A DNA stretch of 64,000 bases. Source: Methylobacillus glycogenes JCM 2850 (lineage in GTDB: Bacteria; Pseudomonadota; Gammaproteobacteria; Burkholderiales; Methylophilaceae). The stretch covers positions 1 through 64,000 of the forward strand of contig NZ_BAMT01000008.1 in assembly GCF_000617925.1 (NCBI RefSeq), given 5' to 3'. The notes under the pieces are model-generated. The model was not told where the DNA came from, did not search any database, and worked only from the letters and a program-made list of their open reading frames with translations. Shown piece after piece: positions 36,842 to 55,582 of the stretch (the stretch's first letter is position 1; each line of letters begins with the position of its first letter). The position numbers were made by a program, and so were the translations under genes.

Positions 36842-36926
36842 ACTCAGCAGGCGGCAAGGCGGCTGAAGCCCGCCCAACCTCAACGCCGCGCCCGCATTTA
36901 AACCCTGGGTGCATCAGGAGAACAAC

Positions 36927-37673: not shown

Positions 37674-37678
37674 TTATC
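37674..37678 (+). repeat. Target-site duplication, left copy (TTATC)
   Basis: The five bases TTATC immediately precede the TGTG terminus of element 1 and recur immediately after its right terminus at 42484-42488. Confidence 0.9.
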
Positions 37679-37687
37679 TGTGGTTTG

Positions 37688-37746
37688 CACCATAAGTTGC
37701 AAGTTTGACACCATAAAGTGCAAGTTTTTACATCATAAGGTGCAAT
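37688..37746 (+). repeat. Three TnsB-type binding sites, left end of element 1
   Basis: The sites are CACCATAAGTTGCAAG (37688-37703), CACCATAAAGTGCAAG (37709-37724) and CATCATAAGGTGCAAT (37731-37746). Start-to-start spacing is 21 and 22 bp, and all are oriented inward from the TGTG terminus. Confidence 0.88.
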
Positions 37747-37797
37747 TACAAAGCCCACTTATTATGGGCTTTGTAATTTATAAAATACTTAGACAGA

Positions 37798-38022
37798 TCA
37801 CTCTGACGATTTTTGCCAGTTTGGAAATTTCATTTTCAACCGCTCTACAGTGTGTCGCCATTTAGGAGTAGTAGGCCTACATACCGTATTTTGGTTTCCA
37901 AATAAACCAACTTCATTTAAAGCTTCATCGCTATCTACTGTTTGTAACCATTCAATCCTAACAAAATATTCAGCTTGATCAGGATCAAATACCGACGAAT
38001 TGCAAAGCTGATCTTTTGCAGC
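37798..38022 (-). pseudogene. 3' remnant of an unidentified gene
   Basis: A minus-strand frame open from 38022 to a TGA at 37798 has no plausible start codon in frame and is interrupted upstream by a TGA. Its sequence is protein-like: DPDQAEYFVRIEWL, then NEVGLFGNQNTVC and PKWRHTVERLKMKF. The GLFGNQNTVC-type ending seems familiar as a conserved C-terminus, but I cannot name the family. It looks like the tail of a cargo gene truncated at about 38000, where the TniQ-like fragment of the other strand begins. Confidence 0.55.
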
Positions 38023-38483
38023 TCATAGTGTCTGGGAAGTTGAAGCCTAGTGGTAGATGCGAATCTGCACCAAAGAATCTTATCTTTGATCGCCTAGAGG
38101 CAGAAACAGCTACATCCAATGTATCTGTTGATGGAGATAGATTCATTTCTAGTGCTGCTGCGAACAGCCAATATTATCTAAATCCTCCTACAGCAAAGCT
38201 TCTATGCACGTTAGGCAAAGTTGAATATTACAGATGCCGCAATAATCACTGGATTTTAAGAGAGTCTATTGATGCCTTCATGAAAGGCATCGTATCCTGC
38301 GCTTGGATAGCTCAGACATGTAAGATTAAATATTCCGCTTTAGAAAATATATGTGAGGAGATGGGTATTCCCCTTCTTAAACTGTCACCAGAGTTACCAA
38401 TTGAGCAAAGCTTTATCAATACCTCGTATTTAGCAGCCTTAGGCATTGCACACTCTTTCCAAACTTTGCAGGATGATGACTAG
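38016..38483 (+). pseudogene. C-terminal fragment resembling TniQ/TnsD
   Basis: The frame is open from 37962; a TTG at 38016 is the first possible start but is unlikely to be a true one. The 155 residues look like the C-terminal part of a TniQ-family target-selection protein: LLQLIVSGKLKPSGR, then LIFDRLEAE, then two helical repeats with LNPPTAKLLCTLGKVEYYR and WILRESIDAFMKGIVSCAWIA. The zinc-ribbon N-terminus of TniQ is missing. Its position next to the left end fits a remnant of the transposition module. An intact TniQ-like regulator with a different start is unlikely. The assignment is by pattern only. Confidence 0.5.
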
Positions 38484-38491
38484 GATCATTT

Positions 38492-39058
38492 GTGGAAACA
38501 ACAAAGTTTAGTATATGCGGCATTAAAGAGCTTAATCAGCATACTCACACAGGGGCTACACATGTTCTCTCTTTCGTAGACCCAGAGCTGCAAGTCATTG
38601 AAGGCCTTGATCAGATTGATTGTATAGAGAAATCAGTATTTCGCTTTCATGACATTATTGAGCCTAAGCAAGGCTATGTACTTCCTACTAAAAGCGATAT
38701 GGAAAAGATTATTGCGTTAGGAGAAAAGTACATGCATCTTAAAGCGCATGTACTGCTTCATTGCCATCAAGGGGTATCAAGATCAACAGCAGTCCTTATT
38801 GCATTATTTGCTCAATCTCAGCCAGAATTGGCAGAAGATGAATTATTTGCAATACTGCGTTCATATCGCAAACAGGCATGGCCAAACTCTTTGATGATTC
38901 AGCACTTTGACGATTTACTAGGGAAAAAGGGAAAGTTAGTTAAATCATTATCTCGTCATTATGCTTTTCAAATCGCATCCAGACCCGCGTACCTTCGATT
39001 GATGAGAGTTTTAGGCAGACAAAAAGAATTAGAAATGGGATTAGCAGTAGAAAAATAA
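38492..39058 (+). CDS. Tyrosine/dual-specificity phosphatase-like protein
   Basis: The GTG start at 38492 has AGGA six bases upstream, the site overlapping the stop of the TniQ-like fragment. The 188 residues contain the PTP loop HCHQGVSRS (Cys91, Arg97: C-x5-R) and a likely general acid Asp54 in FRFHDII. This is the plan of bacterial dual-specificity-like phosphatases that act on phosphotyrosine or phospho-nucleotide-like substrates. No signal peptide is seen, so it is cytoplasmic. It heads a run of same-strand cargo genes beside two nucleases, an unusual context for a phosphatase. Confidence 0.8.
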   Translation: METTKFSICGIKELNQHTHTGATHVLSFVDPELQVIEGLDQIDCIEKSVFRFHDIIEPKQGYVLPTKSDMEKIIALGEKYMHLKAHVLLHCHQGVSRSTAVLIALFAQSQPELAEDELFAILRSYRKQAWPNSLMIQHFDDLLGKKGKLVKSLSRHYAFQIASRPAYLRLMRVLGRQKELEMGLAVEK

Positions 39059-39155
39059 TTATTTATGCATTATAAAAACTCAATCAATCCCTACTCGACT
39101 CTTACCAACTAATATCATCCATACAGCTAACGGATATTCATAAGTTATTAATTTC

Positions 39156-39791
39156 ATGAAAAACAATATAAAATTAAATGATATAGAAGCAGCCATTGCT
39201 TTGTATAAGAAAAATAAATTTTCATGGAATATTCGACCTGTTGATTGGCACATAAGCACACCCACTGGTGAGTTATATCCACTTAAATATATTTATGCAA
39301 TTGCGATAGGTAAAAATCCTCCTCAATTCACAACCAATCAGGCTAAAAATGCAATGCTTCATTTAAATCTTCCTTACGTTAGCTTGAGGTTTGTGAAAGA
39401 GAATGAAATAGCTTTACACAATGATGTGGATGCATCACTACAAGACAGGGCATCCCGATTGCATCGATTGGAAACAGCCAGTAAAGTCCCAACAAAACGT
39501 TTGGTTATAAGAGAGGAATACGACCGCAACTCTGATGTTATTGCTGAGGTTCTAGATAGAGCCAAGGGTTACTGTGAAAGTTGTAATGAAAAAGCACCAT
39601 TTAACCGTCTAAGGGACAATAGGCCTTATTTAGAGGTCCATCATATTGTTAGGCTAGCAGACGGTGGAGATGATAGCGTACAAAATGCAGAAGCATTGTG
39701 TCCAAATTGTCACAGACAAAAACATTTTTGGCTGACAATTTTTAAATTAATCGAAAAATTTCAGTCAATGCAAATTGAACATAATAAATAA
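39156..39791 (+). CDS. McrA-type HNH endonuclease with an N-terminal recognition-like domain
   Basis: This 211-residue protein carries a classical HNH nuclease at the C-terminus: Cys140-x2-Cys143, LEVHHI (His162/163), Asn177, and LCPNCHRQKH (Cys182, Cys185, His190). The first 80 residues (YPLKYIYAIA, PQFTTNQAKNAMLHLNLPYVSL) resemble the head domain found ahead of HNH modules in ScoMcrA-like modification-dependent restriction enzymes; that link is inference. A helical linker joins the two. It could cleave modified or invading DNA. It is followed six bases later by the unknown gene at 39797, so the two are probably translated together. Confidence 0.85.
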   Translation: MKNNIKLNDIEAAIALYKKNKFSWNIRPVDWHISTPTGELYPLKYIYAIAIGKNPPQFTTNQAKNAMLHLNLPYVSLRFVKENEIALHNDVDASLQDRASRLHRLETASKVPTKRLVIREEYDRNSDVIAEVLDRAKGYCESCNEKAPFNRLRDNRPYLEVHHIVRLADGGDDSVQNAEALCPNCHRQKHFWLTIFKLIEKFQSMQIEHNK

Positions 39792-39796
39792 ATAAT

Positions 39797-40950
39797 ATGA
39801 ATTTAAATACATTCTCTCGCAGTTCTGATGTTATTTCTTTCGTATCATGGTTCAATGAAAATTATCATTCTTTAATTATAAATTTCCGAATAATAAGAAC
39901 AAGATTTGTTCCTGAAGGAATCTATATATCAGGCACAGGGTTTTCATCGGCACTCAACCACTATCGTTGGTTAGCTACTGGCATGCACACGGGTGATTGG
40001 CAAGAAACAAAAGATAAACTATCAAACTTTAGGACTTCGTTACGTAAATTTACAAAAATTAATGACTCTGAATTCGCTCTACAGACTTGCGCAGAAATTC
40101 TGAAATGGGGAGGAGATAGAAATTCAAATTTTGGAGCATATCCATTCCTTTATGGTAAATATAAAAACAAAGAACTAACAACCTATCTTGAAAAATCTTC
40201 TGAAACCTTAAAGCTCGAAAAATCAAATTTGGAAGAATTGTCTGGTATTGAAAAAATGAATGCAATGCTGACGAAAGTCCATGCAATTTACTCAGATGAT
40301 GGCCTACCAATTTATGATTCAAGAGTTGCAGCAGCAATTGCTACATTAATTGAAATGTGGAGACGTGCATCTTCAAAAGAAAAAGAAGCGCTTCCACCAG
40401 AACTCACATTTCCCTCCACAACGCGGACTCGCAGGGTTATCAATGCTTATCCAGATGCTATCTACCCGCACACCATAAGTTACAACCAATCTGACTCAGC
40501 TATTTTATGGGCAAGCGCAAAAGTAAGATTGGGATGCTAATCAAATTAATACTAAAAGATAATCCAGATTTATTTAGCCATGAATCAACAAGTGAGCGCA
40601 TGCATGCTTTTGAAGCATGCCTTTTCATGATCGGCTACAATGTAGGATGCTTAACAAGCTATGAAAAAAAGATACCTTCTCGAAATATATCTAATGAATC
40701 TCCAATAAAATCCTTCAAAAATGAAACCACAACATTAACTGGCGATACCGTCATTCAATACAATATAGATTTAATATCTTATGGAATTACATGCAAATGG
40801 GGTAAAACAAGATTTAACTTTGAAAAAGAGTTAATAGATGACATATTATTATTATGTCCTGAAAGCACATCTTTGCCTCTTGGAGCAAATATGACAGGAA
40901 ATTCCCCTAATTTATCATTAGGATCTTGCTTCAAAATGCCCATGCAATAA
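39797..40950 (+). CDS. Unknown 384-residue cargo protein (frameshifted)
   Basis: Two overlapping frames, 39797-40540 and 40507-40950, become one protein of about 384 residues if the GGG at 40531-40533 is GGGG (reading RLGMLIKLILK). I recognise no named family. Visible features are a helical N-terminus with HYRWLATGMHTGDW, a conserved-looking ILKWGGDRNSNFG, and MLTKVHAIYSDDGLPIYDSRVAAAIATLI, a PIYDSRV motif that feels like part of a wider family found beside restriction genes. There is no signal peptide and no transmembrane segment. It sits between the HNH nuclease and a PD-(D/E)XK nuclease, which suggests a partner or sensor role. Residues HTISYNQ are encoded by a near-copy of the element's TnsB site (40471-40486). 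Confidence 0.65.
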
Positions 40951-41092
40951 ATCCCAGGTGGCTTCCTGTCTTGCTGCTGTGTTAGTTAAAGAGAATCTCG
41001 CTGAATGGCATAAGCTAGGTTCATCTATAATTCTCACCTTCAAATAAAACTTTATCAACTCCCAAATAGTCATTAGACCGCCACAAAATTAA

Positions 41093-41500
41093 GTGATGAA
41101 AAGACTAGATAAGAAAACAAAAAGACTACTACATTTTTTAGATCAACAAGGCTTTGATTGGTTAATTCATGAGTTAAAAATTTTGAGAAGTCATAATAAT
41201 GCATTTCGTAATGACTCAATCGATACATTAGGAGTCATACAAGATAGAAGCATCCAGACATACGATGATCATATAAGTTACTTACTCTTCAGGATCAAAC
41301 AAATAACCCAAATGATAGATGCAACAAATATGATTGCATCTGAATTAAATATTGAAAGCATTAAACTATCACGCACAAATGCGAGCATGGAAGAATCTTC
41401 GGTCTCAAGAATAAGTAACATCGAATACAATGAAATTTCAAATAAATTTCATAGACTTATCAACGAAGTCGAGAGACTATCAAACAATGAACGACGATAA
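41093..41500 (+). CDS. Small helical protein of unknown function
   Basis: This 135-residue protein is rich in Lys, Asp, Ile and Ser and is predicted helical by inspection (DKKTKRLLHFLDQQGFDWLIHELKIL, then LLFRIKQITQMIDATNMIASEL). A possible coiled coil spans the middle. No catalytic motif is visible. Its 3' end overlaps the nuclease start at 41487 by 14 bp, so the two are translationally coupled, which suggests it is a dedicated partner or inhibitor. A toxin-antitoxin relationship is conceivable but not supported by any motif. Confidence 0.6.
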   Translation: MMKRLDKKTKRLLHFLDQQGFDWLIHELKILRSHNNAFRNDSIDTLGVIQDRSIQTYDDHISYLLFRIKQITQMIDATNMIASELNIESIKLSRTNASMEESSVSRISNIEYNEISNKFHRLINEVERLSNNERR

Positions 41501-42284
41501 ACAGGCTCTTTTAACAATAAAAAATATTTTGTCCGAGATAGTGAGCACTATCCCTACACTACAAGAAGCTAAAGGTGCGGGTCGTATTTTTGAGCTTTAT
41601 GTACTGATGAAGCTTGCAAGAGCACTGAAAACATTAAAATGGGATATTGAAGTACTTTCCCCAAATGGAACACTTACGGGTACTTTCATACAGCGAGCTG
41701 GGGCACCATCTGGTTTCACCCCAACAGACATTAATGGACCTACTTCTTTAAAAATAGTTAAAGGTGCTGCTGAATATGAAATTTGGAATGGGATTCAGTT
41801 TGAAGGGCGCAGCAAAACAAGACATGAGATAGACATTTCGGTTATTCCTCATGCGATGGCTCAGGCTATGCGTAAAAAACACATTGACTCATTTCCATTT
41901 GGTCGACCACGAGTATGTGTCGAATGCAAAGATGTTATGAGTACTGGTAGCTTGGATGAAATGCGAGCATTCGTTGCTCGGTTATACGATCTAACCATTC
42001 TTAATATTCATTCAAGTAAACTTTATCCCCCTCTATCGTTTTACGGGCACATCTACGACTCCAATCCGCCGACTTATGCTCATCCTCCTTCCCCTATAAC
42101 TTTCCGTGATTCAAATAGAGATTCTTTCAGTGCAATAGCTAGAAGCACGGGGTTTTCAAAAGGGACGGATCCTTTGTCTACTTATTATAATATTCACCGT
42201 TTTGAAAACATTGTTGAACCCAGCACTTCCGCCGATAAATTTATTGAAAATCTTGCGAAATGGATTGATCAAAAGTTGCACTAA
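41487..42284 (+). CDS. PD-(D/E)XK-type nuclease, putative
   Basis: The start is taken at ATG 41487 (MNDDKQAL); the longer frame from 41430 overlaps the previous gene further. The 265 residues contain the nuclease signature: Glu36 in GRIFELYVLMKLA, Asp116 in HEIDISVI and Glu146-x-Lys148 in VCVECKDV, in the right order and spacing for a PD-(D/E)XK core. The C-terminal 100 residues are unassigned. Many restriction and defence effectors carry this fold; nicking or cutting of foreign DNA is the likely activity. No associated methyltransferase is visible in the element. Confidence 0.75.
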   Translation: MNDDKQALLTIKNILSEIVSTIPTLQEAKGAGRIFELYVLMKLARALKTLKWDIEVLSPNGTLTGTFIQRAGAPSGFTPTDINGPTSLKIVKGAAEYEIWNGIQFEGRSKTRHEIDISVIPHAMAQAMRKKHIDSFPFGRPRVCVECKDVMSTGSLDEMRAFVARLYDLTILNIHSSKLYPPLSFYGHIYDSNPPTYAHPPSPITFRDSNRDSFSAIARSTGFSKGTDPLSTYYNIHRFENIVEPSTSADKFIENLAKWIDQKLH

Positions 42285-42348
42285 GGCCAACACCCATGTT
42301 CGATTGAACTTGCTGAGACCACAATCATCCCAGGCATGAAATCTACTA

Positions 42349-42475
42349 GTTGCAACTTATGCGTAATTCAATCGCTAAACTTGCAATTTATGGTGATAAT
42401 TGATTGCAGCTTATGTTAATCATTTAGTGGGTAGTTTATTGAATTACATATTTATTAAGTGGCAGCTTATAGGTT
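42349..42475 (-). repeat. Four TnsB-type binding sites, right end of element 1
   Basis: Inverted relative to the left sites: GTTGCAACTTATGCGT (42349-42364), CTTGCAATTTATGGTG (42380-42395), ATTGCAGCTTATGTTA (42403-42418) and TGGCAGCTTATAGGTT (42460-42475). Start spacings are 31, 23 and 57 bp, ending 8 bp before the terminus. Confidence 0.88.
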
Positions 42476-42483
42476 AATGCACA

Positions 42484-42488
42484 TTATC
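42484..42488 (+). repeat. Target-site duplication, right copy (TTATC)
   Basis: TTATC directly follows the ACA terminus of element 1 and is identical to 37674-37678. Confidence 0.9.
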
Positions 42489-42548
42489 TCTGTGCAACAG
42501 ACCATGAGTTGCCATGGATTTTATTTAACAGAATCATTAACTTAAATA

Positions 42549-42578
42549 GAAAACCCGTAGCAATCGCTACGGGTTTTC
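42549..42578. terminator. Terminator-like hairpin downstream of element 1
   Basis: A perfect 13-bp stem GAAAACCCGTAGC / GCTACGGGTTTTC has a four-base loop (AATC). It could be carried by element 2 near its left end, or it could be the original nrdJ terminator. Confidence 0.75.
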
Positions 42579-42812
42579 TATTTATAGGGTGAAAATCTGC
42601 CCAAAATCCCTACATTTTTTTTCGCTAATGACGGTTTCATTGAAATGTCTGATAGTCGAAAATCTTATATTCGGGGCATTGGTGATATTGGATTACCAGA
42701 GAGTAGCAGACTGACTAACAGTTCAGATATTAGGACTTCAGTCTCTTTGTTAGACAATTTAGGGGTTCCAACTTTCAAACTCTTGACCGTCCATTGGACG
42801 GACTCATTGAGC

Positions 42813-43739
42813 CTACTTCAATTCGACTCTATAACCTGCTAATTTCCAGGCATCGATACCACCTGCCAAAGGCCTAACATTCAGGTAGCCTTTACTAATA
42901 AATGCCTTGGCGATCTTGGCGGCAGTAACTTCGTTAGGGCATGAGCAGTAAAGAATTATTTCCGCATTATCCGCGATCTCAAGTTCAAGCTCATGCAACT
43001 TCGCCAGGGGCAAGAATTGTGCGCCTGGGATCCAGCCATCCTCCAGCAGATCTGGAGTTCTGGTGTCGATGATGACAGGCCTCTCGCCGCGCTCCATTAG
43101 TTCATTCAGGCTTTCCACGCTGATTCTCGCCATGCGTAGCTCTTTCATAAACCTGTACCGCTCCAGCCATTTATACGCAACAAACGTAATTAGACCACCA
43201 ATCACCAGCATGGCACCCCAACGTCCCATTTCCACTAGCACCAGCAATAACTGATCAATAACTGAACTGAATGTAATGCCTAACCAGAAGGCTGAACCGG
43301 CCCAAATTGCAGCTCCCAAGCCATCCATGATCAAAAATGTTAACAGCTTCGTGCCAGATGATCCGGCAAGCGCACTGGAGATTGAGGCAAAACCTGGGAC
43401 AAACTTACAGACCAGCAAGGCTGGAGGGCCTATGCGCAAGTACAATGCTTCGGTTTGCTTGATACATGAATCCGGTGAAAGCGATAGTTTGCAAAGCTTG
43501 CCCAATACTCGCTTGCCATAGCGCCTGCCAGCGAGATACCAAATGGTGTCAGCAATCAATGCGCCGCTGACAGCAAGAAGTAGCAGCGTGGCAATGGCAT
43601 GCTCGCCTGAAGTATTCAAAGCAGCAGTCACGATCAGAGTGGGATAAGCTGGGATGGGTAATCCCAGTTGCTCCAGCAGCACGTTCAGGAAAACAATCAC
43701 CAAACCATATTGCTGCAACAGTTCTACAAAGTATTCCAA
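42813..43739 (-). CDS. DedA-family membrane protein fused to a rhodanese domain
   Basis: The N-terminal 200 residues are a DedA/SNARE-associated domain, with LPIPAYPTLIVTAAL, a GALIADTIWYLAGRRYG stretch and KFVPGFASISSALAGSSG. Such proteins act in membrane lipid (undecaprenyl phosphate or phosphatidylethanolamine) scrambling. The C-terminal 110 residues are a rhodanese domain (PVIIDTRTPDLLEDGWIPGAQFLP). The active-site loop is YCSCPNEVTAAKIA, with Cys in the sulfur-carrying position. It is the first cargo gene of element 2, next to an AraC regulator on the same strand nine bases away, so the two may be one transcript. Confidence 0.9.
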   Translation of the reverse strand: MEYFVELLQQYGLVIVFLNVLLEQLGLPIPAYPTLIVTAALNTSGEHAIATLLLLAVSGALIADTIWYLAGRRYGKRVLGKLCKLSLSPDSCIKQTEALYLRIGPPALLVCKFVPGFASISSALAGSSGTKLLTFLIMDGLGAAIWAGSAFWLGITFSSVIDQLLLVLVEMGRWGAMLVIGGLITFVAYKWLERYRFMKELRMARISVESLNELMERGERPVIIDTRTPDLLEDGWIPGAQFLPLAKLHELELEIADNAEIILYCSCPNEVTAAKIAKAFISKGYLNVRPLAGGIDAWKLAGYRVELK

Positions 43740-43748
43740 AGCCTAACC

Positions 43749-44573
43749 TTACATCAAGACATATTGACCAGGAGTGACGCCAGTCTTGCGTTTGAAGCTT
43801 CTGGTCAGATGACTCTGATCAGAAAATCCACACACTGGTGCGATGTCACCCAGCGAGAAACCAGAGGTAATCATTTTTCTTGCGTGAATCACCCTGATCA
43901 TTTGTAGATAATCATGCGGTGTAAGGCCCATGGCTCGCCTGAACTGCCTCAGCAGCACAAAAGGATTCATCCCTACAAGATCAGCGATATCCTCCAACTT
44001 GATATTCAATTGGAAGTTTTCCCTCAAATATTCAACTACCATCCGCAATTGTGGTTTGCAATTAAATCTGTTGCTGACGGTCTTTACAGCACGCTTCTCG
44101 TAAATCAAGCCTTGTAGCAATACAGCCAGGTAGCTGGACTTTTCAAGTTCGCAATCACTGCTCTCCAAAGTGGAGTGTGCCCTGAAGAATAGGCCACGTA
44201 ACTCAGGGTTCTTGACCATATGATCACTGAAATCGATAGCAGCCAGATCAATCTGATAATTTTCACTGAGGTTCAGGAAGGTGGATGGGGAAAAACGTAT
44301 TTCCCTGCAAATGGCTCCCCAAGGGGCCACGTATTCAGAATCAAGGGAAAAGATTTGACCCGCATCTCTAAAAACCAGTGCGTCCGGGGTCTCAATGAAT
44401 GTATTGCCATTCTGGTTACATCGCCATGCACAATCCTTGAAACCAATGATGGCTATTTCATCATGGAAAACCTTATCCATGGATATGACTGAAGCCGGAT
44501 GAATATCGAAGCGGAACAAATTACACTCAGCCACCTTCCAACTTACTATCCTACTTTTGTTCGCTTTATTCAT
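43749..44573 (-). CDS. AraC-family transcriptional regulator
   Basis: This 274-residue regulator has an N-terminal cupin-like sensor half (KSRIVSWKVAECNLFRFDIHPAS onward). The C-terminal pair of helix-turn-helix motifs (about 175-270) contains LEDIADLVGMNPFVLLRQFRRAMGLTPHDYLQMIRV and GDIAPVCGFSDQSHLTRSFKRKTGVTPGQY. The effector is unknown. It lies directly upstream of the DedA-rhodanese gene and could regulate it or the nearby hydrolase operon. Confidence 0.92.
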   Translation of the reverse strand: MNKANKSRIVSWKVAECNLFRFDIHPASVISMDKVFHDEIAIIGFKDCAWRCNQNGNTFIETPDALVFRDAGQIFSLDSEYVAPWGAICREIRFSPSTFLNLSENYQIDLAAIDFSDHMVKNPELRGLFFRAHSTLESSDCELEKSSYLAVLLQGLIYEKRAVKTVSNRFNCKPQLRMVVEYLRENFQLNIKLEDIADLVGMNPFVLLRQFRRAMGLTPHDYLQMIRVIHARKMITSGFSLGDIAPVCGFSDQSHLTRSFKRKTGVTPGQYVLM

Positions 44574-44645
44574 ACCTCCACCCTTACAGCCAATTTTAGC
44601 AAGGAGTATAGAAGCAATTTTTATACCCCTCTGTGCGGTAGCCGT

Positions 44646-45474
44646 TTAACTCTGCACAAATGCCAGAAGATCATCGTTCAAACGGTCTTTGCTGGTATCG
44701 CCCAGACTGTGTGAACCACCTTCATATATCTTAAGTACTGAATCTTTCACGAGTTTTGCAGCTAGCAGTGCCGAGGTTGCTATTGGCACAATTTGGTCAT
44801 CGTCACCGTGAATAATCAAGGTAGGGATATCAAACTTTTTCAGGTCTTCTGTGAAATCCGTTTCTGAGAAAGCTTGGATGCAATCGAATGTGTTTTTGTG
44901 TCCGGCCATCAAACCCTGCATCCAGAAAGCATCTATCATCCCTTGTGATTTGGGCGCACCTTCCCGATTGAAGCCAAAGAAAGGGCCGCTAGCCAATTCT
45001 TGGTAAAGCTGTGATCTGTCCTTGATGGATGCTGCACGGAGTCCATCAAACACTTCTTTGGGCACACCATTGGATTAGCCTCTGTCTTGAGCATCAAGGG
45101 TGTTACCGCCCCCATCAACACTGCCTTGGCCACCCTGGCTGTGCCATGGCGCCCTATATAACGCGCCACCTCACCGCCGCCGGTGGAGTGACCGACTAGA
45201 ATCGCGTTTTGAACACTTAGGTGATTCAGCAACTCAGCCAAGTCATCCGCATATTGATCCATATGATTGCCAGTCCAAGGCTGACTGGATCGTCCATGAC
45301 CTCGTCTATCGTGAGCAATGCACCTGAAGCCGTGTTCAGCCAAGTGCAGCATTTGTGACTCCCAGGCATCGGAGCTTAATGGCCAGCCATGGCAAAATAC
45401 CACTGGAATGGCTGCGCCTGATCCCCAATCCTTGTAATAAAGCTCGGTGCGTCCTGCGTCGTGAATTTGGGCAT
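44646..45474 (-). CDS. Alpha/beta hydrolase, non-haem haloperoxidase-like (two frameshifts)
   Basis: This is a 277-residue-type alpha/beta hydrolase of the chloroperoxidase subgroup. The ATG at 45474 gives the family start MPKFTTQDG once a base is added at 45450; the frame then reads [11 protein letters not shown]. The nucleophile elbow is VGHSTGGGE, the acid Asp and His are in [10 protein letters not shown] and GGSHSLG. A second break lies at 45070-45073 ([12 protein letters not shown]), where one base is also missing. Both fit the window-wide deletion pattern. The gene lies 41 bp downstream of the alginate-type porin gene on the same strand and ends the metabolic operon of element 2. Confidence 0.85.
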
Positions 45475-45515
45475 GTGTCGTTCTTTCGAGAAAGGTGTAA
45501 AAAAGTAAACTTGGC

Positions 45516-47730: not shown

Positions 47731-47731
47731 T

Positions 47732-48334: not shown

Positions 48335-48346
48335 CTTGCTTATCTC

Positions 48347-48568
48347 CTAGTGGCCTTCTGAATGTGGCTTACCGGTAGGGCCGCCACATAAATGTTTGGT
48401 CGTACTTTGGTGCTTTGCGATTTTGTCGGCGATCAAGTAACCAATGGTCATCGACAACACCAATAATGCACCTGGTATTACGGGAGGTGACGGCACAGGC
48501 ACACCTATGCCCTTACATAACAGGCCAATAGCAAAGCCCAGTAAAAGTCCCAGAAAAATCTTAATCAT
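48347..48568 (-). CDS. XapX-domain small membrane protein, second copy
   Basis: This 73-residue relative of the previous gene has GLLCKGIGVPVPSPPVIPGALLVLSMTIGYLIADK and a His-rich tail (HLCGGPTGKPHSEGH) that may bind a metal. Its start overlaps the MFS gene stop by 8 bp, so it is translated together with the transporter. The tandem duplication within one operon suggests a homo- or hetero-oligomer. Confidence 0.85.
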   Translation of the reverse strand: MIKIFLGLLLGFAIGLLCKGIGVPVPSPPVIPGALLVLSMTIGYLIADKIAKHQSTTKHLCGGPTGKPHSEGH

Positions 48569-50204
48569 GGTGATGCTCCGGTAATGGTTCGAAAACGGTG
48601 TTTGGGTTGGGCGTTACTGCATGCAGCACCTTGGGTGCACTCTCGCCTTGGTGTAATTTGCGTATGAGTTCCTGCAGGGTCTTATGGCTCCCTGACACTC
48701 TTAAGTGCTGGCGCATATGCGCGACCCAGGACTCTTCCATAAAGACTTCAGTGAATTTGCCCTTGGCGCTGATATCTTCAAAGATGCCCCAGTTCACCGC
48801 GCCATCACGCCTGCGTAATGTACCCAGCTCTTTCACCAATCTTTGGAACTCTTGACGGTCTGCATCCTGGATGACGTACTCGATAGTGACCAATACTGGC
48901 CCATCCTCGGTTTCCACATGCCCAGCGGGCACAGGCTCAGCCCAATGTCCTGAAGGCAGGTAATCTTCGTGTTCGCCCAGATTGAGTTTGAACTTCCAGG
49001 TCAAGGGAATCAGCACCAGTGCGGCAACTGCTGCAGCCGTCAGGGTCGTGGATAGTCCAAGCACGCCAGCCAGCTTGCCCCAAACCAGGGAGCCCACGGT
49101 CATGGCTCCATAGAACATCATTTGGAAGATAGCTAGTCCACGAGCTCTCACCCATTCTGGCAAGGCCAACTGGGCAGAGACATTCAGTGAGGAGATCACC
49201 ATGATCCAGGAAATCCCTGAAACAAAACCTGCGACTATGCCTGCCACTTCACTGCCTCCATAGGCAAACAGCAGCATGCCCAGCGCACTGCCGACAGTAC
49301 CCAGCAATACCATCATGTCTGGGCCAAAGTATTTCTTAAGGCTAGACATGAGGAAAGTACCCGAAACCGCACCGGCACCCAGCGCTGTCAGCAAGATACC
49401 GAATAAGCTGGGCCCACCGTGCAGCAGCTCTTTGGCCACCAGCGGCAGCAAGGCCCAATAGGCGGAGGCAAAGGTGAAGAAGGCAAGACCTCGCCCCATG
49501 GTAGCTAACAGTGGTGTACTGCGCAGGGAAAATGCCATGCCAGCACGCATTGCCCCAACCATTTTTTCTCTAGGCAAGGTATCCGCTTGCTTCTGAGCCG
49601 CGTGCCACCATAGCAATGCTGCCACCACAACGATGTAAGAAACCGCATCCAGTACTACGGTAGTGATGGCACCGGCCGCAACCAGAACAAAACCACCTAA
49701 AGCAGGCCCGATAGCACGTGCAATATTGACACTCACGCCATTGAGCGCAATTGCGGGTTGCAACGCCTCCTTGGGCACAAGCTTGGGCACGATGGCCTGC
49801 CATGCAGGCATGGAGAAAGCAGCACCTGCACCAGTCAAGAAGGTGAAGAGCAACAACGTCCAGGCATTGACCTGTCCTACCCATAGCAGTCCTGCAAACA
49901 CGAACAACATGGCAGCAGAAAATATCTGCGTGATGATGAGCAACTTGCGTCTGTCAAAAATATCGCCCAGTGCACCTGCCGGAAGGGCAAACAGGAAAAT
50001 GGGCAATGCTGTAGCTGCCTGCACCAAAGAAACCATGAAGGGGGATGGGGATAGATCTGTCATCACCCAGCCCGAGGTCACGTTAAACATCCAGGTGCCG
50101 ATGTTGGATATCAGCGTTGCAATCCACAACACTGTAAACACACCAAACTTAAATGGTGTGAATGCAGATGCGGTCTTAGGTATTTGAGGTGTATTTGTCG
50201 TCAT
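48561..50204 (-). CDS. MFS transporter with a C-terminal monooxygenase-like domain
   Basis: The first 410 residues are a 12-helix major facilitator of the MFS_3/EntS type, with the loop GALGDIFDRRKLLIITQ between TM2 and TM3 and a charged central loop (HAAQKQADTLPREKMVG). The last 130 residues form a soluble domain (VLVTIEYVIQDADRQEFQRLVKEL, then FEDISAKGKFTEVFMEESW) with the dimeric alpha-beta-barrel look of antibiotic-biosynthesis-monooxygenase proteins. It probably moves the operon's small-molecule substrate out of or into the cell. It lies 6 bp from the upstream amidohydrolase gene. Confidence 0.9.
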   Translation of the reverse strand: MTTNTPQIPKTASAFTPFKFGVFTVLWIATLISNIGTWMFNVTSGWVMTDLSPSPFMVSLVQAATALPIFLFALPAGALGDIFDRRKLLIITQIFSAAMLFVFAGLLWVGQVNAWTLLLFTFLTGAGAAFSMPAWQAIVPKLVPKEALQPAIALNGVSVNIARAIGPALGGFVLVAAGAITTVVLDAVSYIVVVAALLWWHAAQKQADTLPREKMVGAMRAGMAFSLRSTPLLATMGRGLAFFTFASAYWALLPLVAKELLHGGPSLFGILLTALGAGAVSGTFLMSSLKKYFGPDMMVLLGTVGSALGMLLFAYGGSEVAGIVAGFVSGISWIMVISSLNVSAQLALPEWVRARGLAIFQMMFYGAMTVGSLVWGKLAGVLGLSTTLTAAAVAALVLIPLTWKFKLNLGEHEDYLPSGHWAEPVPAGHVETEDGPVLVTIEYVIQDADRQEFQRLVKELGTLRRRDGAVNWGIFEDISAKGKFTEVFMEESWVAHMRQHLRVSGSHKTLQELIRKLHQGESAPKVLHAVTPNPNTVFEPLPEHHHD

Positions 50205-50210
50205 GATGTC

Positions 50211-52091
50211 TTAGTAGGCAAAGCAGCCGCAGCCTACGCTCCAGGGGTTATCGAACTTAGGCATCTTGGATGCAATATCCAGGCCCAGCCATGTAGAGAG
50301 CTTGCCGTCATGCCCATGCTGATGCGAGGCATGCGAGCAACCTGGTGTTGTGCAGCTATTCTTGGCAAGTGCAGCATATTTGCCTTCCCCATACTGATAG
50401 CCACCGAATACGCGCACAGGCGACCAGTCTGGGCTGGCAGGTGGGATAGGCCTATCCAAATCCTGGTAATCATCGGCCGCATAAACCACCTGACCACCAA
50501 CCACCGTCAGTACTGCACTAATGGACTTGATGTCTTCATCAGGAATGGTCAGGAAGTCTGCAGACAACACAGCTACATCGGCATACATTCCCGGAACCAT
50601 CGCACCCTTGACGGTCTCTTCATTGGACTTATAGGCACTACCTAGCGTCCAGAGTCTGAGGGCTTCTTCACGCTCCAGAATATTGCTGTCGTCATACAGT
50701 CCCAGCCCACCTATGGTTTTACCGGTCACCATCCAATACAGTGATACCCAGGGGTTATAACTGGCGACACGTGTCGCATCTGTACCGCCGCCAACTGGAA
50801 CACCAAGCTCTAGCATTTTGCGGATTGGAGGTGTTTGTTTAGCTGCATCCTTGCCATAGCGATCCACGAAGTACTCGCCCTGGAAGGCCATACGATGCTG
50901 AATTGCAATGCCACCGCCCAATGCCTTGATCCGCTCCATGCTCTTTTCAGAGACAGTTTCGGCATGATCAAAGAACCAACGCAGATTATTGAATTTCGTG
51001 TCCTGATTGATGGCCTCGAAAACATTCAAGGCGCGGTCTATGGTTTCGTCGTAGGTGGCATGCAAACGGAAAGGCCAACGCTGCTCCACCAGGAAACGTA
51101 CAACCTCGCCTAAATCTTTTTCCATGTTGCCCGACATGTCAGGTCGTGGCTGGAGGAAGTCTTCAAAGTCAGCGGCGGAGAATGCAAGCATTTCTCCAGC
51201 GCCGTTGTGGCGCAGGAAGTTGTCACCGCTATAGGGGGTGATAATCTTCGACCACTTCTGGAAGTCTTGTAATTCCTGGCCCTTATTCTGGGTGAATAAG
51301 TTGTAGGCGATACGCACAGTCATGTCACCCTCGTTATGCAGATGTTCAATGACTTCGTAATCTTCGGGGTAATTCTGGAATCCACCGCCAGCATCAATAC
51401 AACTGGTCAGACCCAAGCGGTTGAGCTCACGCATGAAGTGACGGGTAGAGTTAATCTGATCTTGCAATGGCAACTTCGGGCCTTTGGCCAAAGTTGAATA
51501 AAGAATCATGGCATTGGGTTCTGCAATCAGCATGCCGGTTGGATTGCCATTTTGGTCACGCTCTATGCGCCCACCAACAGGATCCGGGGTGTCTTTTGTA
51601 ATACCCGCAGCCCTCAAGGCTGCTCCATTAAGTAATGCCCTATCGTAAAGGTGCAAAATGAATACGGGGGTATCTGGTGCGACTGCATTGATTTCCGCCA
51701 ATGTTGGTAACCGTCGCTCTCTAAACTGAAACTCACTCCACCCGCCCACTACCCGCACCCATTGGGGTGCCGGTGTACGATCTGCCTGGATTTTCAACAT
51801 TTCAAGGGCATCAGCCACACTGGAGACACCTTCCCAGCGCAACTCCATGTTGTAGTTGAGACCTCCACGAATCAAGTGGATATGACTGTCATTCAAACCT
51901 GGAATGACGCGCCTGCCTTTGAGGTCTATCTGTTTAGTGGTGCCATTTACCAGAGCTTTAATCTCTAGATCAGTACCTAGTGCCAGCACCTTGCCATCTT
52001 TGAATGCAATGGCAGTCACTTCAGGCTTTTGCGGGTCTAGCGTTGTAATCTTGCCGTTATACAAGATGGTTTCGGGAAATTGCGTGCTCAT
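50211..52091 (-). CDS. Amidohydrolase family protein (YtcJ-like)
   Basis: The 626-residue protein is a metal-dependent amidohydrolase of the imidazolonepropionase/YtcJ group. Visible elements are ETILYNGKITTLDPQ at the start, the metal-binding LNDSHIHLIRGGLN, FRLHATYDETIDRALNVFE, and GGGTDATRVASYNPW carrying the active-site Asp. A C-terminal extension HASHQHGHDGKLSTW is His-rich. It is cytoplasmic (no signal peptide) and the first gene of the metabolic operon. The substrate is unknown; a cyclic amide or N-acyl compound is expected from the family. Confidence 0.88.
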   Translation of the reverse strand: MSTQFPETILYNGKITTLDPQKPEVTAIAFKDGKVLALGTDLEIKALVNGTTKQIDLKGRRVIPGLNDSHIHLIRGGLNYNMELRWEGVSSVADALEMLKIQADRTPAPQWVRVVGGWSEFQFRERRLPTLAEINAVAPDTPVFILHLYDRALLNGAALRAAGITKDTPDPVGGRIERDQNGNPTGMLIAEPNAMILYSTLAKGPKLPLQDQINSTRHFMRELNRLGLTSCIDAGGGFQNYPEDYEVIEHLHNEGDMTVRIAYNLFTQNKGQELQDFQKWSKIITPYSGDNFLRHNGAGEMLAFSAADFEDFLQPRPDMSGNMEKDLGEVVRFLVEQRWPFRLHATYDETIDRALNVFEAINQDTKFNNLRWFFDHAETVSEKSMERIKALGGGIAIQHRMAFQGEYFVDRYGKDAAKQTPPIRKMLELGVPVGGGTDATRVASYNPWVSLYWMVTGKTIGGLGLYDDSNILEREEALRLWTLGSAYKSNEETVKGAMVPGMYADVAVLSADFLTIPDEDIKSISAVLTVVGGQVVYAADDYQDLDRPIPPASPDWSPVRVFGGYQYGEGKYAALAKNSCTTPGCSHASHQHGHDGKLSTWLGLDIASKMPKFDNPWSVGCGCFAY

Positions 52092-52192
52092 GGTTTGACA
52101 CCTCTATCAATGCGTTCAACTTGGGTACTGCAGAAACTCCAAGGGTTTTAATGCCATGAGGGGAAGACTAAGCCTTCCCCTCATCTCACAAA

Positions 52193-52858
52193 TTACTTGC
52201 TAACCTTGTGAGGGTGAGTAGTACGCTGTGGGTAGTCGTGCAGCAATGTTGCTGCGTAATCAATGCCCATGCCATAAGCACCAAAGTGCTCACGCGCAAT
52301 GTCAGTGGTGCCTACATAGGTTTCTTTTCTTGCCCAGTCACGTTGCAGTTCAAGCAGGAGCTGAACGGATGTGATGGACTGTGCACCGTGCATTTCGCAA
52401 CGGCGGATGGCAGCATCATGTGCCTCTTGGGAAGTACCGCCGGATGCATCGGTATTCATGATGACGTCGTAACCTTCATCCAAGGCACAGATTGTTGGGA
52501 ATATCAGGCAGGCTTCAGTCCAGAGCGCTGCAATTACAATCTTCTTGCGGCCGGTAGCCTTAAGAGCTTCGATGAACTTAGGATCTTCCCAGCTGTTCAT
52601 GCTGGTACGTTCGATAGGATCTTGTTGCAACACTTCCATCAGCTCTGGCCAGATGTAACCACTGAAGGATTCGGTTTCAACCGCAGTCAGAATAGTTGGG
52701 ATGTTGAAATGCTTGGCAGTCTTTGCCATAGCGATGGTGTTATTTTTGAGCAGTTGGCGGTCAATGCTTGTCACGCCAAACGACATTTGTGGTTGATGAT
52801 CGACAAATACGAAAACGCAATTGTCTGGGGTCAATAATTTTTCTGTTGCTGCGGACAT
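52193..52858 (-). CDS. YcaC-type isochorismatase-like hydrolase
   Basis: The ATG at 52858 (MSAATEKLLTP) is preferred; the longer frame adds a non-homologous stretch. The 221 residues include the YcaC features CVFVFVDHQPQMSFG (Asp), ERTSMNSWEDP, and ALWTEACLIFPTICALDEGYDV with the nucleophilic Cys. YcaC-type hydrolases form octamers and act on small amides. It lies 101 bp upstream of the amidohydrolase gene on the same strand, so it may share the LysR-controlled promoter. Confidence 0.9.
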   Translation of the reverse strand: MSAATEKLLTPDNCVFVFVDHQPQMSFGVTSIDRQLLKNNTIAMAKTAKHFNIPTILTAVETESFSGYIWPELMEVLQQDPIERTSMNSWEDPKFIEALKATGRKKIVIAALWTEACLIFPTICALDEGYDVIMNTDASGGTSQEAHDAAIRRCEMHGAQSITSVQLLLELQRDWARKETYVGTTDIAREHFGAYGMGIDYAATLLHDYPQRTTHPHKVSK

Positions 52859-53068
52859 GACTAAACTCCCTAATAAAAAACTCAATGAATGTTTCTACGC
52901 ATGTCAGGCTTCACCCCAGCCATCACTGGATTTTGACGAGCCCTGTCAGGCTGTAGGACACGTTTACGATTTATAACAAACGCCAAAAAACCTGTATTGC
53001 ACAATATTGACCGCTAATGGAAAGTGGTCATTGAGACCCCACCCAAAACGACTGGGTGGAGCCCTCAT

Positions 53069-53770
53069 TTAGTACGGCAAGTCGAAGAGCAAGAACTCAA
53101 CTTCTTTACCCTGAGTAAACTCAAGTCTGTCTTCATGGACGACCTTGAGAGCATCTCCAGTTCTAAGCTGCCGACCGTTCACAACCACTTCACCCCTGAC
53201 GATATGCACGTAACCTATTCGGCCTGGCTGAAATTGGTACTCAGCCCTTTGGTCGCCATCCAGAATTGAGCTGTAAAGATAGGCATCCTGATGAATGAGG
53301 ACTGAACCATCACGACCATCCGGAGAGGCGGTCAGCAATAAATTGCCTTCTTTCTGCGTGACATCGAAATGCCGCTCCTCATAGCTAGGTGCTATACCTT
53401 CTACATTTGGCTGAATCCAAATTTGCAGGAAATGCACCCGCTCTGTAGTGGAGTGGTTGAATTCACTATGACTGACGCCAGTGCCAGCACTCATTCTTTG
53501 CACATCGCCATAACGAATCACCGAGCCAGTGCCCATGCTGTCCTTGTGCTCCAGAGCGCCACTAATCACATAGGAAATGATTTCCATATTGCTATGCGAA
53601 TGGGTACCGAAGCCCCGGGATGGCTGAACCCGGTCTTCATTGATTACCAGCAATGGCCCAAAGCCCAATTGCTCAGGGTTGTAGTAGTGACCAAACGAGA
53701 AAGAGTGATTGGATTGCAACCAACCATGGTCTACAGCACCACGGGCATTGCTTTGATGAACTGTTAACAT
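53069..53770 (-). CDS. Pirin family (bicupin) protein
   Basis: The ATG at 53770 is taken because GAGGTAG precedes it; upstream codons lack similarity. The 233 residues form two cupin domains. The metal site is in the N-terminal one: GFGTHSHSNMEIISYVISGALEHKD with the His-x-His-x5-Glu-type pattern. Pirins act as redox sensors or quercetinases and are often adjacent to YcaC-type hydrolases and LysR regulators, as here. It is divergent from the LysR gene with 170 bp between starts. Confidence 0.92.
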   Translation of the reverse strand: MLTVHQSNARGAVDHGWLQSNHSFSFGHYYNPEQLGFGPLLVINEDRVQPSRGFGTHSHSNMEIISYVISGALEHKDSMGTGSVIRYGDVQRMSAGTGVSHSEFNHSTTERVHFLQIWIQPNVEGIAPSYEERHFDVTQKEGNLLLTASPDGRDGSVLIHQDAYLYSSILDGDQRAEYQFQPGRIGYVHIVRGEVVVNGRQLRTGDALKVVHEDRLEFTQGKEVEFLLFDLPY

Positions 53771-53940
53771 GATCTCTACCTCTCTAAATGAGAGCACATC
53801 CAAAATGCTCGCTATATATGCAATAATTTCGAATTACGCATTTCCGTTAAAACTGCGTATTCGTTGGATGTGTGAAGTATGTAGAAAATGATTCGTGAAG
53901 AAAAACGGATAGATTACCAACCTATAATCGAAAATTTCGA

Positions 53941-54859
53941 ATGTTCAGAATAAGCCTTGATGCACTGCTGGTTTTAGATGCTATTGATCGCCTGGGATCC
54001 TTTGCCGCTGCTGGCAATGAACTCTTTAAAGTTCCTTCCACCATTTCCTACACCATCAGCAAACTTGAGGATGATTTGGGGGTGAAGATATTTGAGCGGC
54101 AAGGGCCAAAGGTGTCATTAACCACACCTGGAGCTGAGCTCTTAAAGGAAGGGCGCTATCTATTAAAAGCTGCCGGTGATCTGGAGCAACGCGTGCGCAG
54201 AGTGGCATCCGGCTGGGAGACGGAACTCGCAATTGGCATGGACACCATGTTTTCCCCAGCCGTATTGTCCGATGACATAAAAGACTTTTACACGGTAGCA
54301 GGCAAGACCCGCTTGAAAATTAGTCAGGAATCATTGTCTGGCACATGGGAAGCACTGCTGAATGGAAGAGTGGACATTTTGATTGGGGCTGCGGGTGAGC
54401 CTCCCTCAGGTGGTGGCTATAGCTGCATAAATTAGGCACCATGGATTTTGTCTTTGCTGTTGCACCTCAGCACCCATTAGCTGCACTAACCCACCCATTG
54501 GGCAAAGATGATTTGAGCCCGCATCGCGCCATCGTCGTCTCAGATCAGTACGCCAAATGGCACCCAAAACTATTGGCGTGTTGTTTGGGCAGGACAACCT
54601 GGCCGTGCCAAACATGCGCTGCAAGCTTGAATATCAAGTCGCGGGCATAGGATTTGGTTTTTTACCTGACTTTATTGCAAGGCCATATATTGACGCAGGG
54701 GTTCTCGTTGAAAAATCTGTAATTGAGCACAGGCAACAAGAAGAGGTCTACTTGGCTTGGCGCAGTGACGCTACTGGAGAAGGCCTGAAGTGGTGGATTG
54801 AGCGCATGAAACAAGCCGATCACTTTGAGGCTTTCAAGATTGCACTCCCACGTCAATAA
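53941..54859 (+). CDS. LysR-family regulator of the metabolic cargo operon (two frameshifts)
   Basis: A LysR-type activator of about 306 residues, with an N-terminal winged helix-turn-helix (LDALLVLDAIDRLGSFAAAGNELFKVPSTISYTISKLEDDLGVKIFER) and the periplasmic-binding-like effector domain. Two breaks interrupt it: at 54429-54431 (AAA, expected AAAA; gives IKLGTMDFVF) and at about 54563-54569 (gives KWHPKTIGVLFGQDN). With both corrected it ends at 54859. It is divergent from pirin and probably controls pirin, the YcaC-type gene and the downstream operon. Confidence 0.85.
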
Positions 54860-54876
54860 AGGGGTTGGCTGCGCGT

Positions 54877-55406
54877 TCATTTAATTGGATGGAAATAGAC
54901 TGTCACATCATGACCAAGACCTGTCGGCCATTTTTCAATTTTGATCTCAGTCCGCCAGCTATCGCCTTTGATGACACCTTTTTTTCCAGCTAAGATCATC
55001 TTCTCAACCTTCTTCTTTTCATCTCCGTCCAAGAGTACAGCCAACCTGCCTGCTACCCTGGCAACTTCTGCGTGCCAGCAGCCTTGGCTTTTTCATTGTT
55101 TACATTAAGTATCAGTGAAATCCTCATCAACTGGCGGGGATTGTCATAATCACCCATGACATAGAAAGCGAGGTTATTCCTCATGCCATTCCTGCCTGGA
55201 CCACCAGTTAAATCAACCATATTGCTCGCGCAACTAACGGTTGAGTTGTTATATGGACGGGCTGGGTAACCAATTTCTTTGCCAAGACTACAATAGCTCT
55301 GGGGGAGCTCCTTGCTGGACAATGCAGCAACTGCACAGGATGGCGAAAATACGGCAAGAGCCAATAAAAACAAGCTGACACGCCAGGCTAATGCTACCAT
55401 CGACAC
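54877..55406 (-). CDS. Small exported protein of unknown function (frameshifted)
   Basis: The start is ATG 55406 with a signal peptide (LFLLALAVFSPSCAVAALS). The frame as given stops at 55053 after GTQKLPG, but the sequence downstream remains coding in another frame (AEVARVAGRLAVLLDGD ... IKIEKWPTGLGHDVTVYFHPIK, ending 54877). One base added in 55071-55076 joins them into about 176 residues. Two cysteine pairs in the mature part (YCSLGKEIGYP, VSCASN) may form disulphides. No family is recognised. It is the last gene before the right end of element 2. Confidence 0.7.
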
Positions 55407-55445
55407 AATCCCTACTAATTTCCATTAAAAACAACAAGTTGCAAT

Positions 55446-55582
55446 AATGACATTTTATGCTTGTTTTTCATACATTAATGACATTATATGGTGCCAATTT
55501 AATGACAGGTTATGGTGATGATCAATATGTATGTCATTGATTTCTAATATGTAATAAATGAAAACTTATGGTGTGTTGCACA
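55446..55582 (-). repeat. Four TnsB-type sites and right terminus of element 2
   Basis: The sites on the plus strand are AATGACATTTTATG (55446), AATGACATTATATG (55477), AATGACAGGTTATG (55501) and AATGAAAACTTATG (55557). Start spacings are 31, 24 and 56 bp, against 31, 23 and 57 in element 1. The terminus GTTGCACA ends at 55582. Confidence 0.8.

What the first reader, a model, noticed from the sequence alone, without database searches (positions are those of the whole stretch)
37674..55582. Two stacked transposase-less Tn7-like elements downstream of nrdJb
Element 1 has perfect TTATC duplications, TGTG...CACA termini and inverted TnsB-type site arrays. Element 2 starts 2 bp further on and has 18/20 matching ends of a different site family. 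The right-end site spacings are nearly identical (31/23/57 against 31/24/56). Because their site sequences differ, target immunity would not prevent stacking. I know of no Tn7-like element pair described at nrdJ, and both lack tnsABC, so they would have to move in trans.
Basis: partly seen in the sequence, partly recalled or inferred. Interest (0 to 1): 0.93.

Follow-up and report, generated by a model that had tools for sequence, protein, structure and literature searches.

The report
Stacked Tn7-like transposons behind nrdJ
Two Tn7-like transposons, neither carrying a transposase gene, lie end to end just behind the nrdJ gene of a Methylobacillus relative, and related genomes show that the end of this gene is a recurrent landing site of a whole transposon family, likely steered there by a protein predicted to recognise the gene.

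Summary
Element 1 (37679-42483) has exact TTATC duplications, TGT...ACA termini, three left and four right sites. Element 2 (42491-55582) starts 2 bp past that duplication; its ends match 18/20 and its right-end spacing is 31/24/56 against 31/23/56. Of 79 nrdJb genes with readable downstream DNA, 15 have such a left end 21-33 bp after the stop (0.035 expected). In seven genomes an element with a left end there carries tnsA-tnsB-tnsC-tniQ; in two more the operon lies 12-16 kb from nrdJb. Their TnsB and TniQ cluster apart from five operons with no nrdJb in view. Stacking recurs: in G133 the second element also starts 2 bp past the first one's duplication, with another site family. Element 1 keeps the last ~157 residues of the nrdJ-type TniQ inside its left end; a second transposase-less element (L052) keeps ~54. 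Both look like internal-deletion products. No cognate transposase was found in the assembly (92.8% complete). Against: element 2 has no target duplication, a worn left end and no relatives found; two of five stacks pair look-alike sites, so immunity evasion is not required. This is a Tn7-like subfamily at a site I did not find in print.

The parts
34601..36841 (+). nrdJa, large part of a split class II ribonucleotide reductase
   Evidence: NrdJ_Z E 2.7e-171, above cut-off
36909..37649 (+). nrdJb, C-terminal part of the reductase; its 3' end is the likely attachment site
   Evidence: matches positions 577-759 of 759 of a B12-dependent reductase model, TSCPD; left ends 21-33 bp after the stop in 15 of 79 relatives
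37674..37678 (.). left copy of the element 1 target duplication, TTATC
37679..42483 (+). element 1, 4805 bp, Tn7-like, no tnsABC
37691..37744 (+). element 1 left end, three likely TnsB sites (CATAA cores at 37691, 37712, 37734)
37745..37777 (.). inverted repeat just inside the left end, a likely terminator
   Evidence: read from the sequence
37962..38483 (+). open frame with the C-terminal ~157 residues of an nrdJ-type TniQ (ORF 38016-38483); the rest of the gene is missing
   Evidence: profile hit positions 467-623 of 628, E 5.4e-15, best decoy 0.7; 0 Pfam families
38492..39058 (+). cargo: dual-specificity-phosphatase-like protein
   Evidence: PF00782 E 1e-6, below the curated cut-off
39156..39791 (+). 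cargo: HNH endonuclease, type IV restriction-like
   Evidence: PF01844 E 2.5e-12; PADLOC mREase_IV E 2e-21
39797..41044 (+). cargo gene of unknown function; its 417-aa relative is spread here over three pieces in two frames, so it is broken
41430..42284 (+). cargo ORF, 284 aa, no family
42357..42483 (-). element 1 right end, four likely TnsB sites (cores TTATG at 42357, 42388, 42411; TTATA at 42467)
42484..42488 (.). right copy of the element 1 target duplication, TTATC
42491..55582 (+). element 2, 13092 bp, Tn7-like, second site family, no tnsABC
42491..42542 (+). element 2 left end, one clear terminal site, worn inner sites
   Evidence: 24/30 to the right end
42543..42584 (.). perfect 19-bp inverted repeat inside the element 2 left end, a likely terminator
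   Evidence: I3
42813..54859 (.). element 2 cargo: VTT/rhodanese protein, AraC and split LysR regulators, hydrolase, alginate-export-like porin, DoxX, MFS carrier, amidohydrolase, isochorismatase, pirin
   Evidence: Pfam; the part from 45.5 to 54.7 kb is collinear in G035 and G047
55455..55582 (-). element 2 right end, four likely TnsB sites (cores at 55455, 55486, 55510, 55566; the second reads ATATG)

Best explanation
Positions 37679-55582 hold two Tn7-like elements lying end to end 29 bp after the stop codon of nrdJb, likely placed there in two separate insertions by TnsD/TniQ-type target selectors that are predicted to read the 3' end of nrdJb, and the first element has likely lost its transposase genes by internal deletion, since it still carries the tail of such a TniQ gene. 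Shown: the ends, the exact duplication around element 1, the near-fixed distance from nrdJb in relatives, tnsA-tnsB-tnsC-tniQ relatives at the same place, recurrent stacking, and the TniQ tail. Inferred: that TniQ binds the nrdJb 3' end and places the insertion about 25-30 bp downstream; that TnsB binds the arrays; that element 2 went in first and element 1 later, between nrdJb and element 2; that element 1 descends from a complete element by a deletion running from near the left end into tniQ. Leaving nrdJb intact would keep the site open for the next element, which would give a growing stack.
For: Ends and duplication. Site: 15 of 79 nrdJb loci have a left end 21-33 bp after the stop (0.035 expected, from 7 hits of the same test over 710,235 upstream positions); 15 of 187 family genomes hold the array pattern, reversed control 0; nrdJb in 14 of the 16 array regions extracted. 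Machinery: TnsA (PF08722), TnsB (rve_3, Mu-transpos_C), TnsC (TniB) and TniQ (PF06527) in one operon in G133. With a left end at nrdJb and the four genes 0.5-18 kb further: G006, G077, G116, G178 (TniQ short, 386 aa), G133, G014, L008; G116 has a second set in its second element. G074 and G098 have the four genes 16 and 12 kb from nrdJb but no left end was recognised; G001 has a cut tnsB; in L079 only TniQ was found. nrdJ-linked TnsB separate from five operons with no nrdJb in view at 97/97 and TniQ at 94/95, with G130, whose place is unknown, inside. Exact 5-bp duplications in 6 of the 9 elements with both ends found. Stacks: G133 CACGT, then 2 bp, then a second-family left end; G116 TTGTT overlapping a left end that leads to another tns set; G014; G181. 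Empty sites: L053 for L052, L074 for L071/G133. TniQ tails: window E 5.4e-15, L052 E 1.8e-5; no decoy hit up to E 1.
Against: Element 2 has no target duplication and a worn left end; its sites cluster in no other of 150 family genomes and a strict two-site pattern finds no other of 369 class genomes. L052 and G001_C1b also lack an exact duplication. A right-end search over 399 order genomes found nothing, but the pattern was too strict and missed even this window. TniQ binding and TnsB binding are by analogy with Tn7; nothing was tested in the laboratory. One array (G001_C1a) has no nrdJb or tns gene in the 40 kb read. Four nrdJ left ends (G017, G055, G106, G148) show no right end or tns gene in the 38 kb read past nrdJb. 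64 of 79 nrdJb loci have no recognised left end. The TniQ tail is only 21-24% identical to single relatives.
Confidence: 0.85

Rival explanations
1. Element 2 is not one transposition unit: its left end and its right end come from two different insertions of one site family that were fused by a deletion, so the 13 kb between them is a mixed remnant.
For: No target duplication; worn left end that fails the scan; LysR in two ORFs; in G116 and G014 further left ends follow the first element, so fusions are easy.
Against: The two ends match 24/30 and lie where a second element is expected, 2 bp past the duplication, as in G133; the cargo from 45.5 to 54.7 kb is one collinear block in two other genomes.
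Confidence: 0.2
2. Both elements are working satellites: non-autonomous elements moved in trans by complete relatives with the same sites, not dead leftovers.
For: Element 1 keeps both ends, an exact duplication and the kind of sites that complete elements have; a second small transposase-less element, L052, exists, with an empty site in L053.
Against: No cognate TnsB or TniQ in the assembly, 92.8% complete; element 1 DNA found in 1 of 112 family genomes, its own; the 417-aa cargo gene is broken; L052 and element 1 keep TniQ tails of different length and share no cargo detected at E 1e-4, which points to separate deletions.
Confidence: 0.25
3. An ordinary genomic island placed by a tyrosine or serine recombinase, with chance repeats.
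For: Duplicated nrdJb 3' fragments occur in G014 and L079, as recombinase islands can leave.
Against: No recombinase family among the 20 ORFs of the two elements scanned with Pfam; TGT...ACA ends with spaced arrays, 5-bp duplications and tns operons at the same place; reversed control 0.
Confidence: 0.02

Closest known systems
Tn7 and Tn7-like transposons with a TnsD/TniQ attachment-site selector
   Same: TGT...ACA ends, three left and four right TnsB-type sites (as told in passages of PMC8649781), 5-bp duplication, tnsA-tnsB-tnsC-tniQ operon in relatives, insertion just past a conserved gene.
   Different: The site is nrdJb, not glmS, a tRNA gene, parE, IMPDH/guaC, yciA, SRP-RNA or comM (sites named in passages of PMC11406308, PMC6360697 and PMC10293859); the two elements of the window lack tnsABC.
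[quoted passage not shown]
   Same: Nearest solved relatives of the G133 TnsB (PseTnsAB E 1.6e-80, Tn6677 TnsB E 3.5e-61) and TnsC (VchTnsC E 1.8e-24); Vibrio ends printed in PMC6360697 also hold ACCATAA (table passage).
   Different: No cas gene among the 20 ORFs of the two elements scanned with Pfam nor among the 20 of 34 listed ORFs of G133 and G178 given to PADLOC (two more ORFs spanned a stretch boundary and were left out); most nrdJ-type TniQ are TnsD-like proteins of 510-638 aa.
Adjacent or nested Tn7-like insertions
   Same: [quoted passage not shown] stacking at attTn7 (Parks and Peters 2007) is recalled, not read.
   Different: Here the second element starts 2 bp past the first one's duplication in two separate pairs (window, G133), each with two site families.

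Membership tests
Tn7-like transposon (element 1) | TGT...ACA termini with spaced transposase-site arrays at both ends | tested here: met
   three left, four right sites
Tn7-like transposon (element 1) | 5-bp target duplication | tested here: met
   TTATC twice
Tn7-like transposon (element 1) | own tnsA, tnsB, tnsC and target selector | tested here: not met
   no TnsA/B/C profile hit in the window below E 0.05; only the C-terminal part of TniQ. So it is filed as a derivative, not as a complete member
Tn7-like transposon (element 1) | fixed attachment site downstream of a conserved gene | tested here: met
   29 bp after nrdJb; 15 of 79 loci at 21-33 bp
Tn7-like transposon (element 2) | TGT...ACA termini with site arrays at both ends | tested here: inconclusive
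   right end met with one core letter off; left end has one clear site only
Tn7-like transposon (element 2) | 5-bp target duplication | tested here: not met
   ATCTC against ACTGT
Tn7-like transposon (element 2) | own tnsABC and target selector | tested here: not met
   for TnsA/B/C, for TniQ. Element 2 is therefore filed only as a probable worn derivative with Tn7-like ends
Tn7-like transposon | transposition by TnsAB with TnsC and TniQ, in the laboratory | not testable with these tools
   -
CRISPR-associated transposon (type I-F3) | cas genes and a CRISPR array in the element | tested here: not met
   no cas family among the 20 ORFs of the two elements scanned with Pfam; CRISPR arrays not searched for

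The most novel reading that the evidence does not exclude
Transposase-less nrdJ elements keep the DNA-reading tail of TniQ on purpose: the tail, still encoded just inside the left end of element 1 and of L052, sits on the nrdJb attachment site and either wards off new insertions or calls in a helper's TnsABC, so these small elements live as guarded or helper-dependent satellites in a stack at one ribonucleotide reductase gene.
Probability: 0.08. Interest if true: 0.85.

Novelty: new variant of a known kind. Interest (0 to 1): 0.64.

Why it matters
A conserved gene end (nrdJb) becomes a further Tn7-like landing site with tns operons, several site families and natural stacks. The stacks let target immunity be tested with pairs whose order of arrival can be read from the duplications, and the end grammar (21/22 left, 31/23/57 right) finds elements without any transposase gene, which surveys that start from transposase genes would miss. 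The two complete relatives whose cargo was scanned carry defence genes (Wadjet jetABCD in G133, PD-T4-6 and HEC-08-like genes in G178), so the site may be a defence-island slot in Methylophilaceae.

Tried and rejected
Own-genome operon at C18 (tnsA, tnsB, split tnsC, two TniQ, beside groES/groEL) as helper for element 1 or 2: held unlikely, since its TnsB is 27% like the nrdJ type and neither site pattern occurs in its 28 kb at 2 or fewer mismatches. Order-wide right-end pattern: 0 of 399, but the pattern misses this window and the genomes known to hold such an end exactly (G178, G014) were not in the draw, so it says nothing. Order-wide TniQ search: 5 of 399 at E 1e-20, one of them G030, which is at nrdJ; in the 3-5 kb held for the other four no nrdJb was seen, which is too short to judge. 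A third element starting at 55585: CCATGnATT words recur there but without regular spacing and without a partner end; dropped. Element 1 on plasmids: 4 records, under the HNH gene only, 60-80% identity. Homologues of the TniQ tail by word search: none of 37 candidates; the profile found it instead. Mu-transpos_C in the own genome: nothing rang, in the controls either, so uninformative. Papers: nrdJ with Tn7, 3 unrelated papers (listing); ribonucleotide reductase with Tn7-like and tnsB, 0; Methylophil with Tn7-like, 0; Tn7-like with target immunity, tandem and genomic island, 0, without genomic island, 3 on CAST engineering or structure (listing); two wider searches (listings only). nrdJ and ribonucleotide reductase have 0 occurrences in the main text of PMC10293859 and PMC8649781, and nrd 0 in PMC11406308 (passages seen, not the whole papers). 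Supplementary tables could not be read, and most subscription papers are not held, so absence from print is not shown.
Full report
What is there. nrdJb ends at 37649; the ORF pair 34601-36841 and 36909-37649 matches class II (B12-dependent) ribonucleotide reductase models. Twenty-nine bases later element 1 begins: TTATC (37674-37678), TGTGG......CACA (42483), TTATC (42484-42488). Its left end has CATAA cores at 37691, 37712 and 37734, its right end TTATG-type cores spaced 31/23/56. Two bases past the duplication, at 42491, element 2 begins; its right end closes at 55582 with spacing 31/24/56, and the two ends match 18 of 20 and 24 of 30. The flanks of element 2 do not match (ATCTC, ACTGT). Element 1 carries a phosphatase-like gene, an HNH endonuclease of the type IV restriction kind and further ORFs; element 2 carries metabolic and transport genes. 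No TnsA, TnsB or TnsC profile built from relatives hits the window convincingly (best 0.085 and 0.99, both outside the two elements).

The site in relatives. In 79 with at least 80 bp downstream (L065 was too short), 15 have TGT plus at least two correctly spaced CATAA cores, the first such TGT lying 21-33 bp after the stop, median 30. The same test over 710,235 upstream positions gave 7 hits, or 0.035 expected for 79 windows. Two more (L048 and L085, the latter from a Ferrovaceae bin) look like left ends by a looser test. A two-site pattern found arrays in 15 of 187 Methylophilaceae genomes, 0 in the reversed control. Of 16 array regions taken out (the window aside), 14 hold nrdJb; G181:C88 is a 3.4-kb stretch and G001_C1a is a true exception.

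The machinery. G133 has, 11 to 17 kb inside the left end, TnsA 226 aa (PF08722), TnsB 664 aa (rve_3, Mu-transpos_C), TnsC 343 aa (TniB) and TniQ 629 aa (PF06527). Seven genomes have a recognised left end at nrdJb and these four genes 0.5 to 18 kb from nrdJb: G006, G077, G116, G178, G133, G014 and L008. In G178 TniQ is only 386 aa. G116 has a second set in its second element, 35-40% like the G133 proteins, its TniQ 35% like that of L079. G074 and G098 have the four genes 16 and 12 kb from nrdJb, but no left end was recognised. G001 has a cut tnsB, and in L079 only TniQ was found. Four operons (G059, G094, G040, G168) showed no nrdJb in the 22-40 kb read, and the own-genome C18 operon none in 28 kb. 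In trees of 16 TnsB and 18 TniQ rows the nrdJ rows fall together, apart from those five operons, at 97/97 and 94/95; G130, whose contig starts inside the element, lies among them. Several rows have long branches, which the tool warns about. By sequence the nearest solved TnsB and TnsC are those of type I-F3 CASTs. A protein search with the G133 TniQ listed 88 relatives at E 1e-3 among 7,995 scored candidates.

Duplications and stacks. Both ends are known for nine elements. Six have exact 5-bp duplications: window element 1 TTATC, G077 TTGTT, G116 TTGTT, G178 ATTTA, G014 GATAT and G133 CACGT (its fourth right-end core does not fit the spacing). Three have none: L052/G025, G001_C1b and window element 2. 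Stacks: in G133 the second left end (CATAAGCGACTAG sites) follows CACGT by 2 bp; in G116 a second left end (CATAAGTTGCGATT sites) overlaps the TTGTT copy and leads to the second tns set; in G014 and G181 a look-alike left end follows; the G181 stack is on a contig stretch without nrdJb. So three of five stacks, the window included, pair different site families and two do not. Immunity evasion by site change fits but is not needed. Empty sites exist: L074 has the same 29 bases after nrdJb as L071 up to the insertion point; L053 reads GCCCCTTTATTTTGTTGTCGGTAG, and L052 has GCCCCTTT before and TTTATTTTGTTGTCGGTAG after its element.

Origin of the transposase-less elements. A profile of 11 TniQ proteins of 560 aa or more (ten nrdJ-linked and G130) hits one place in the window: 37962-38480, profile positions 467-623 of 628, E 5.4e-15, best decoy 0.7. 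The place is 283 bp inside the left end, on the + strand, the orientation of tniQ relative to nrdJb in the mapped operons except G001. In the loci read with that profile (14,343 open frames), separate tails occur also in L052/G025 (positions 571-624, E 1.8e-5, about 150 bp inside its left end) and in the middle of G014; decoys gave nothing up to E 1. The two small elements thus look like products of deletions from near the left end into tniQ, with different break points and no shared cargo found. The 417-aa cargo relative of element 1 is in three pieces here, a sign of decay. The own assembly has one TnsB relative (C18, 27%) and two TniQ genes, both there.

Element 2. Its sites form a cluster only in this genome among 150 family genomes (70 of 150 have some match at two mismatches, outside this genome scattered), and a strict two-site pattern finds only this genome among 369 of the class. 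Element 2 is best read as an older, worn element that picked up a metabolic block; a fusion of two insertions is the main rival.

How it likely works, by steps. Inferred from Tn7 knowledge: TniQ reads the 3' end of nrdJb, TnsC links it to TnsB on the arrays, TnsAB cuts and joins about 25-30 bp past the stop. The last 75 bases of nrdJb are well kept across 81 loci (0.77-0.84 in 15-base steps against 0.67-0.80 in the 105 bases before), which fits a target but also follows from the protein. The gene stays whole, so the site stays open and later elements would land between nrdJb and earlier ones.

Verdict. A new attachment site and stacked, deleted variants of a known kind of transposon; I found no print record in the searches named in Tried and rejected.

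Noticed in passing
G000:C18:81525-87458 (L005): The own genome holds another Tn7-like operon beside groES/groEL: tnsA, tnsB, a tnsC split over two ORFs, two TniQ genes; a likely left end with TTGCAAT-type sites lies at about 79905, and no partner end was recognised on the contig.
   Followed up: partly
G014 joined region 32576-32689 (L018 genome); L079 11738-12022: Extra copies of the nrdJb 3' end lie about 31 kb and 1 kb downstream of the true gene, as if another kind of island or a recombination had copied the attachment site.
   Followed up: partly
window 37745-37777 and 42543-42584; L008, L010, L034, L049, L052, G077: Several left ends have a terminator-like hairpin right after the last site, which could replace the nrdJ terminator pushed away by the insertion; others (L018, L036) have none there.
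   Followed up: no
G001_C1a, joined region 2100 to about 3540: A left array and inverted right-type sites 1.3 kb apart, away from nrdJb and without tns genes: perhaps a miniature element.
   Followed up: no
L081 15928; L021 11053: Left ends of other site families lie 5.2 kb and 0.34 kb past nrdJb with no recognised first element before them, perhaps what remains of older stacks.
   Followed up: no
window 53941-54859: The LysR-type gene of element 2 is in two ORFs; both match neighbouring DNA of the collinear cluster in G047 and G035.
   Followed up: partly
window 55585-55670: CCATGnATT-like words just past element 2, irregularly spaced; no partner found.
   Followed up: partly
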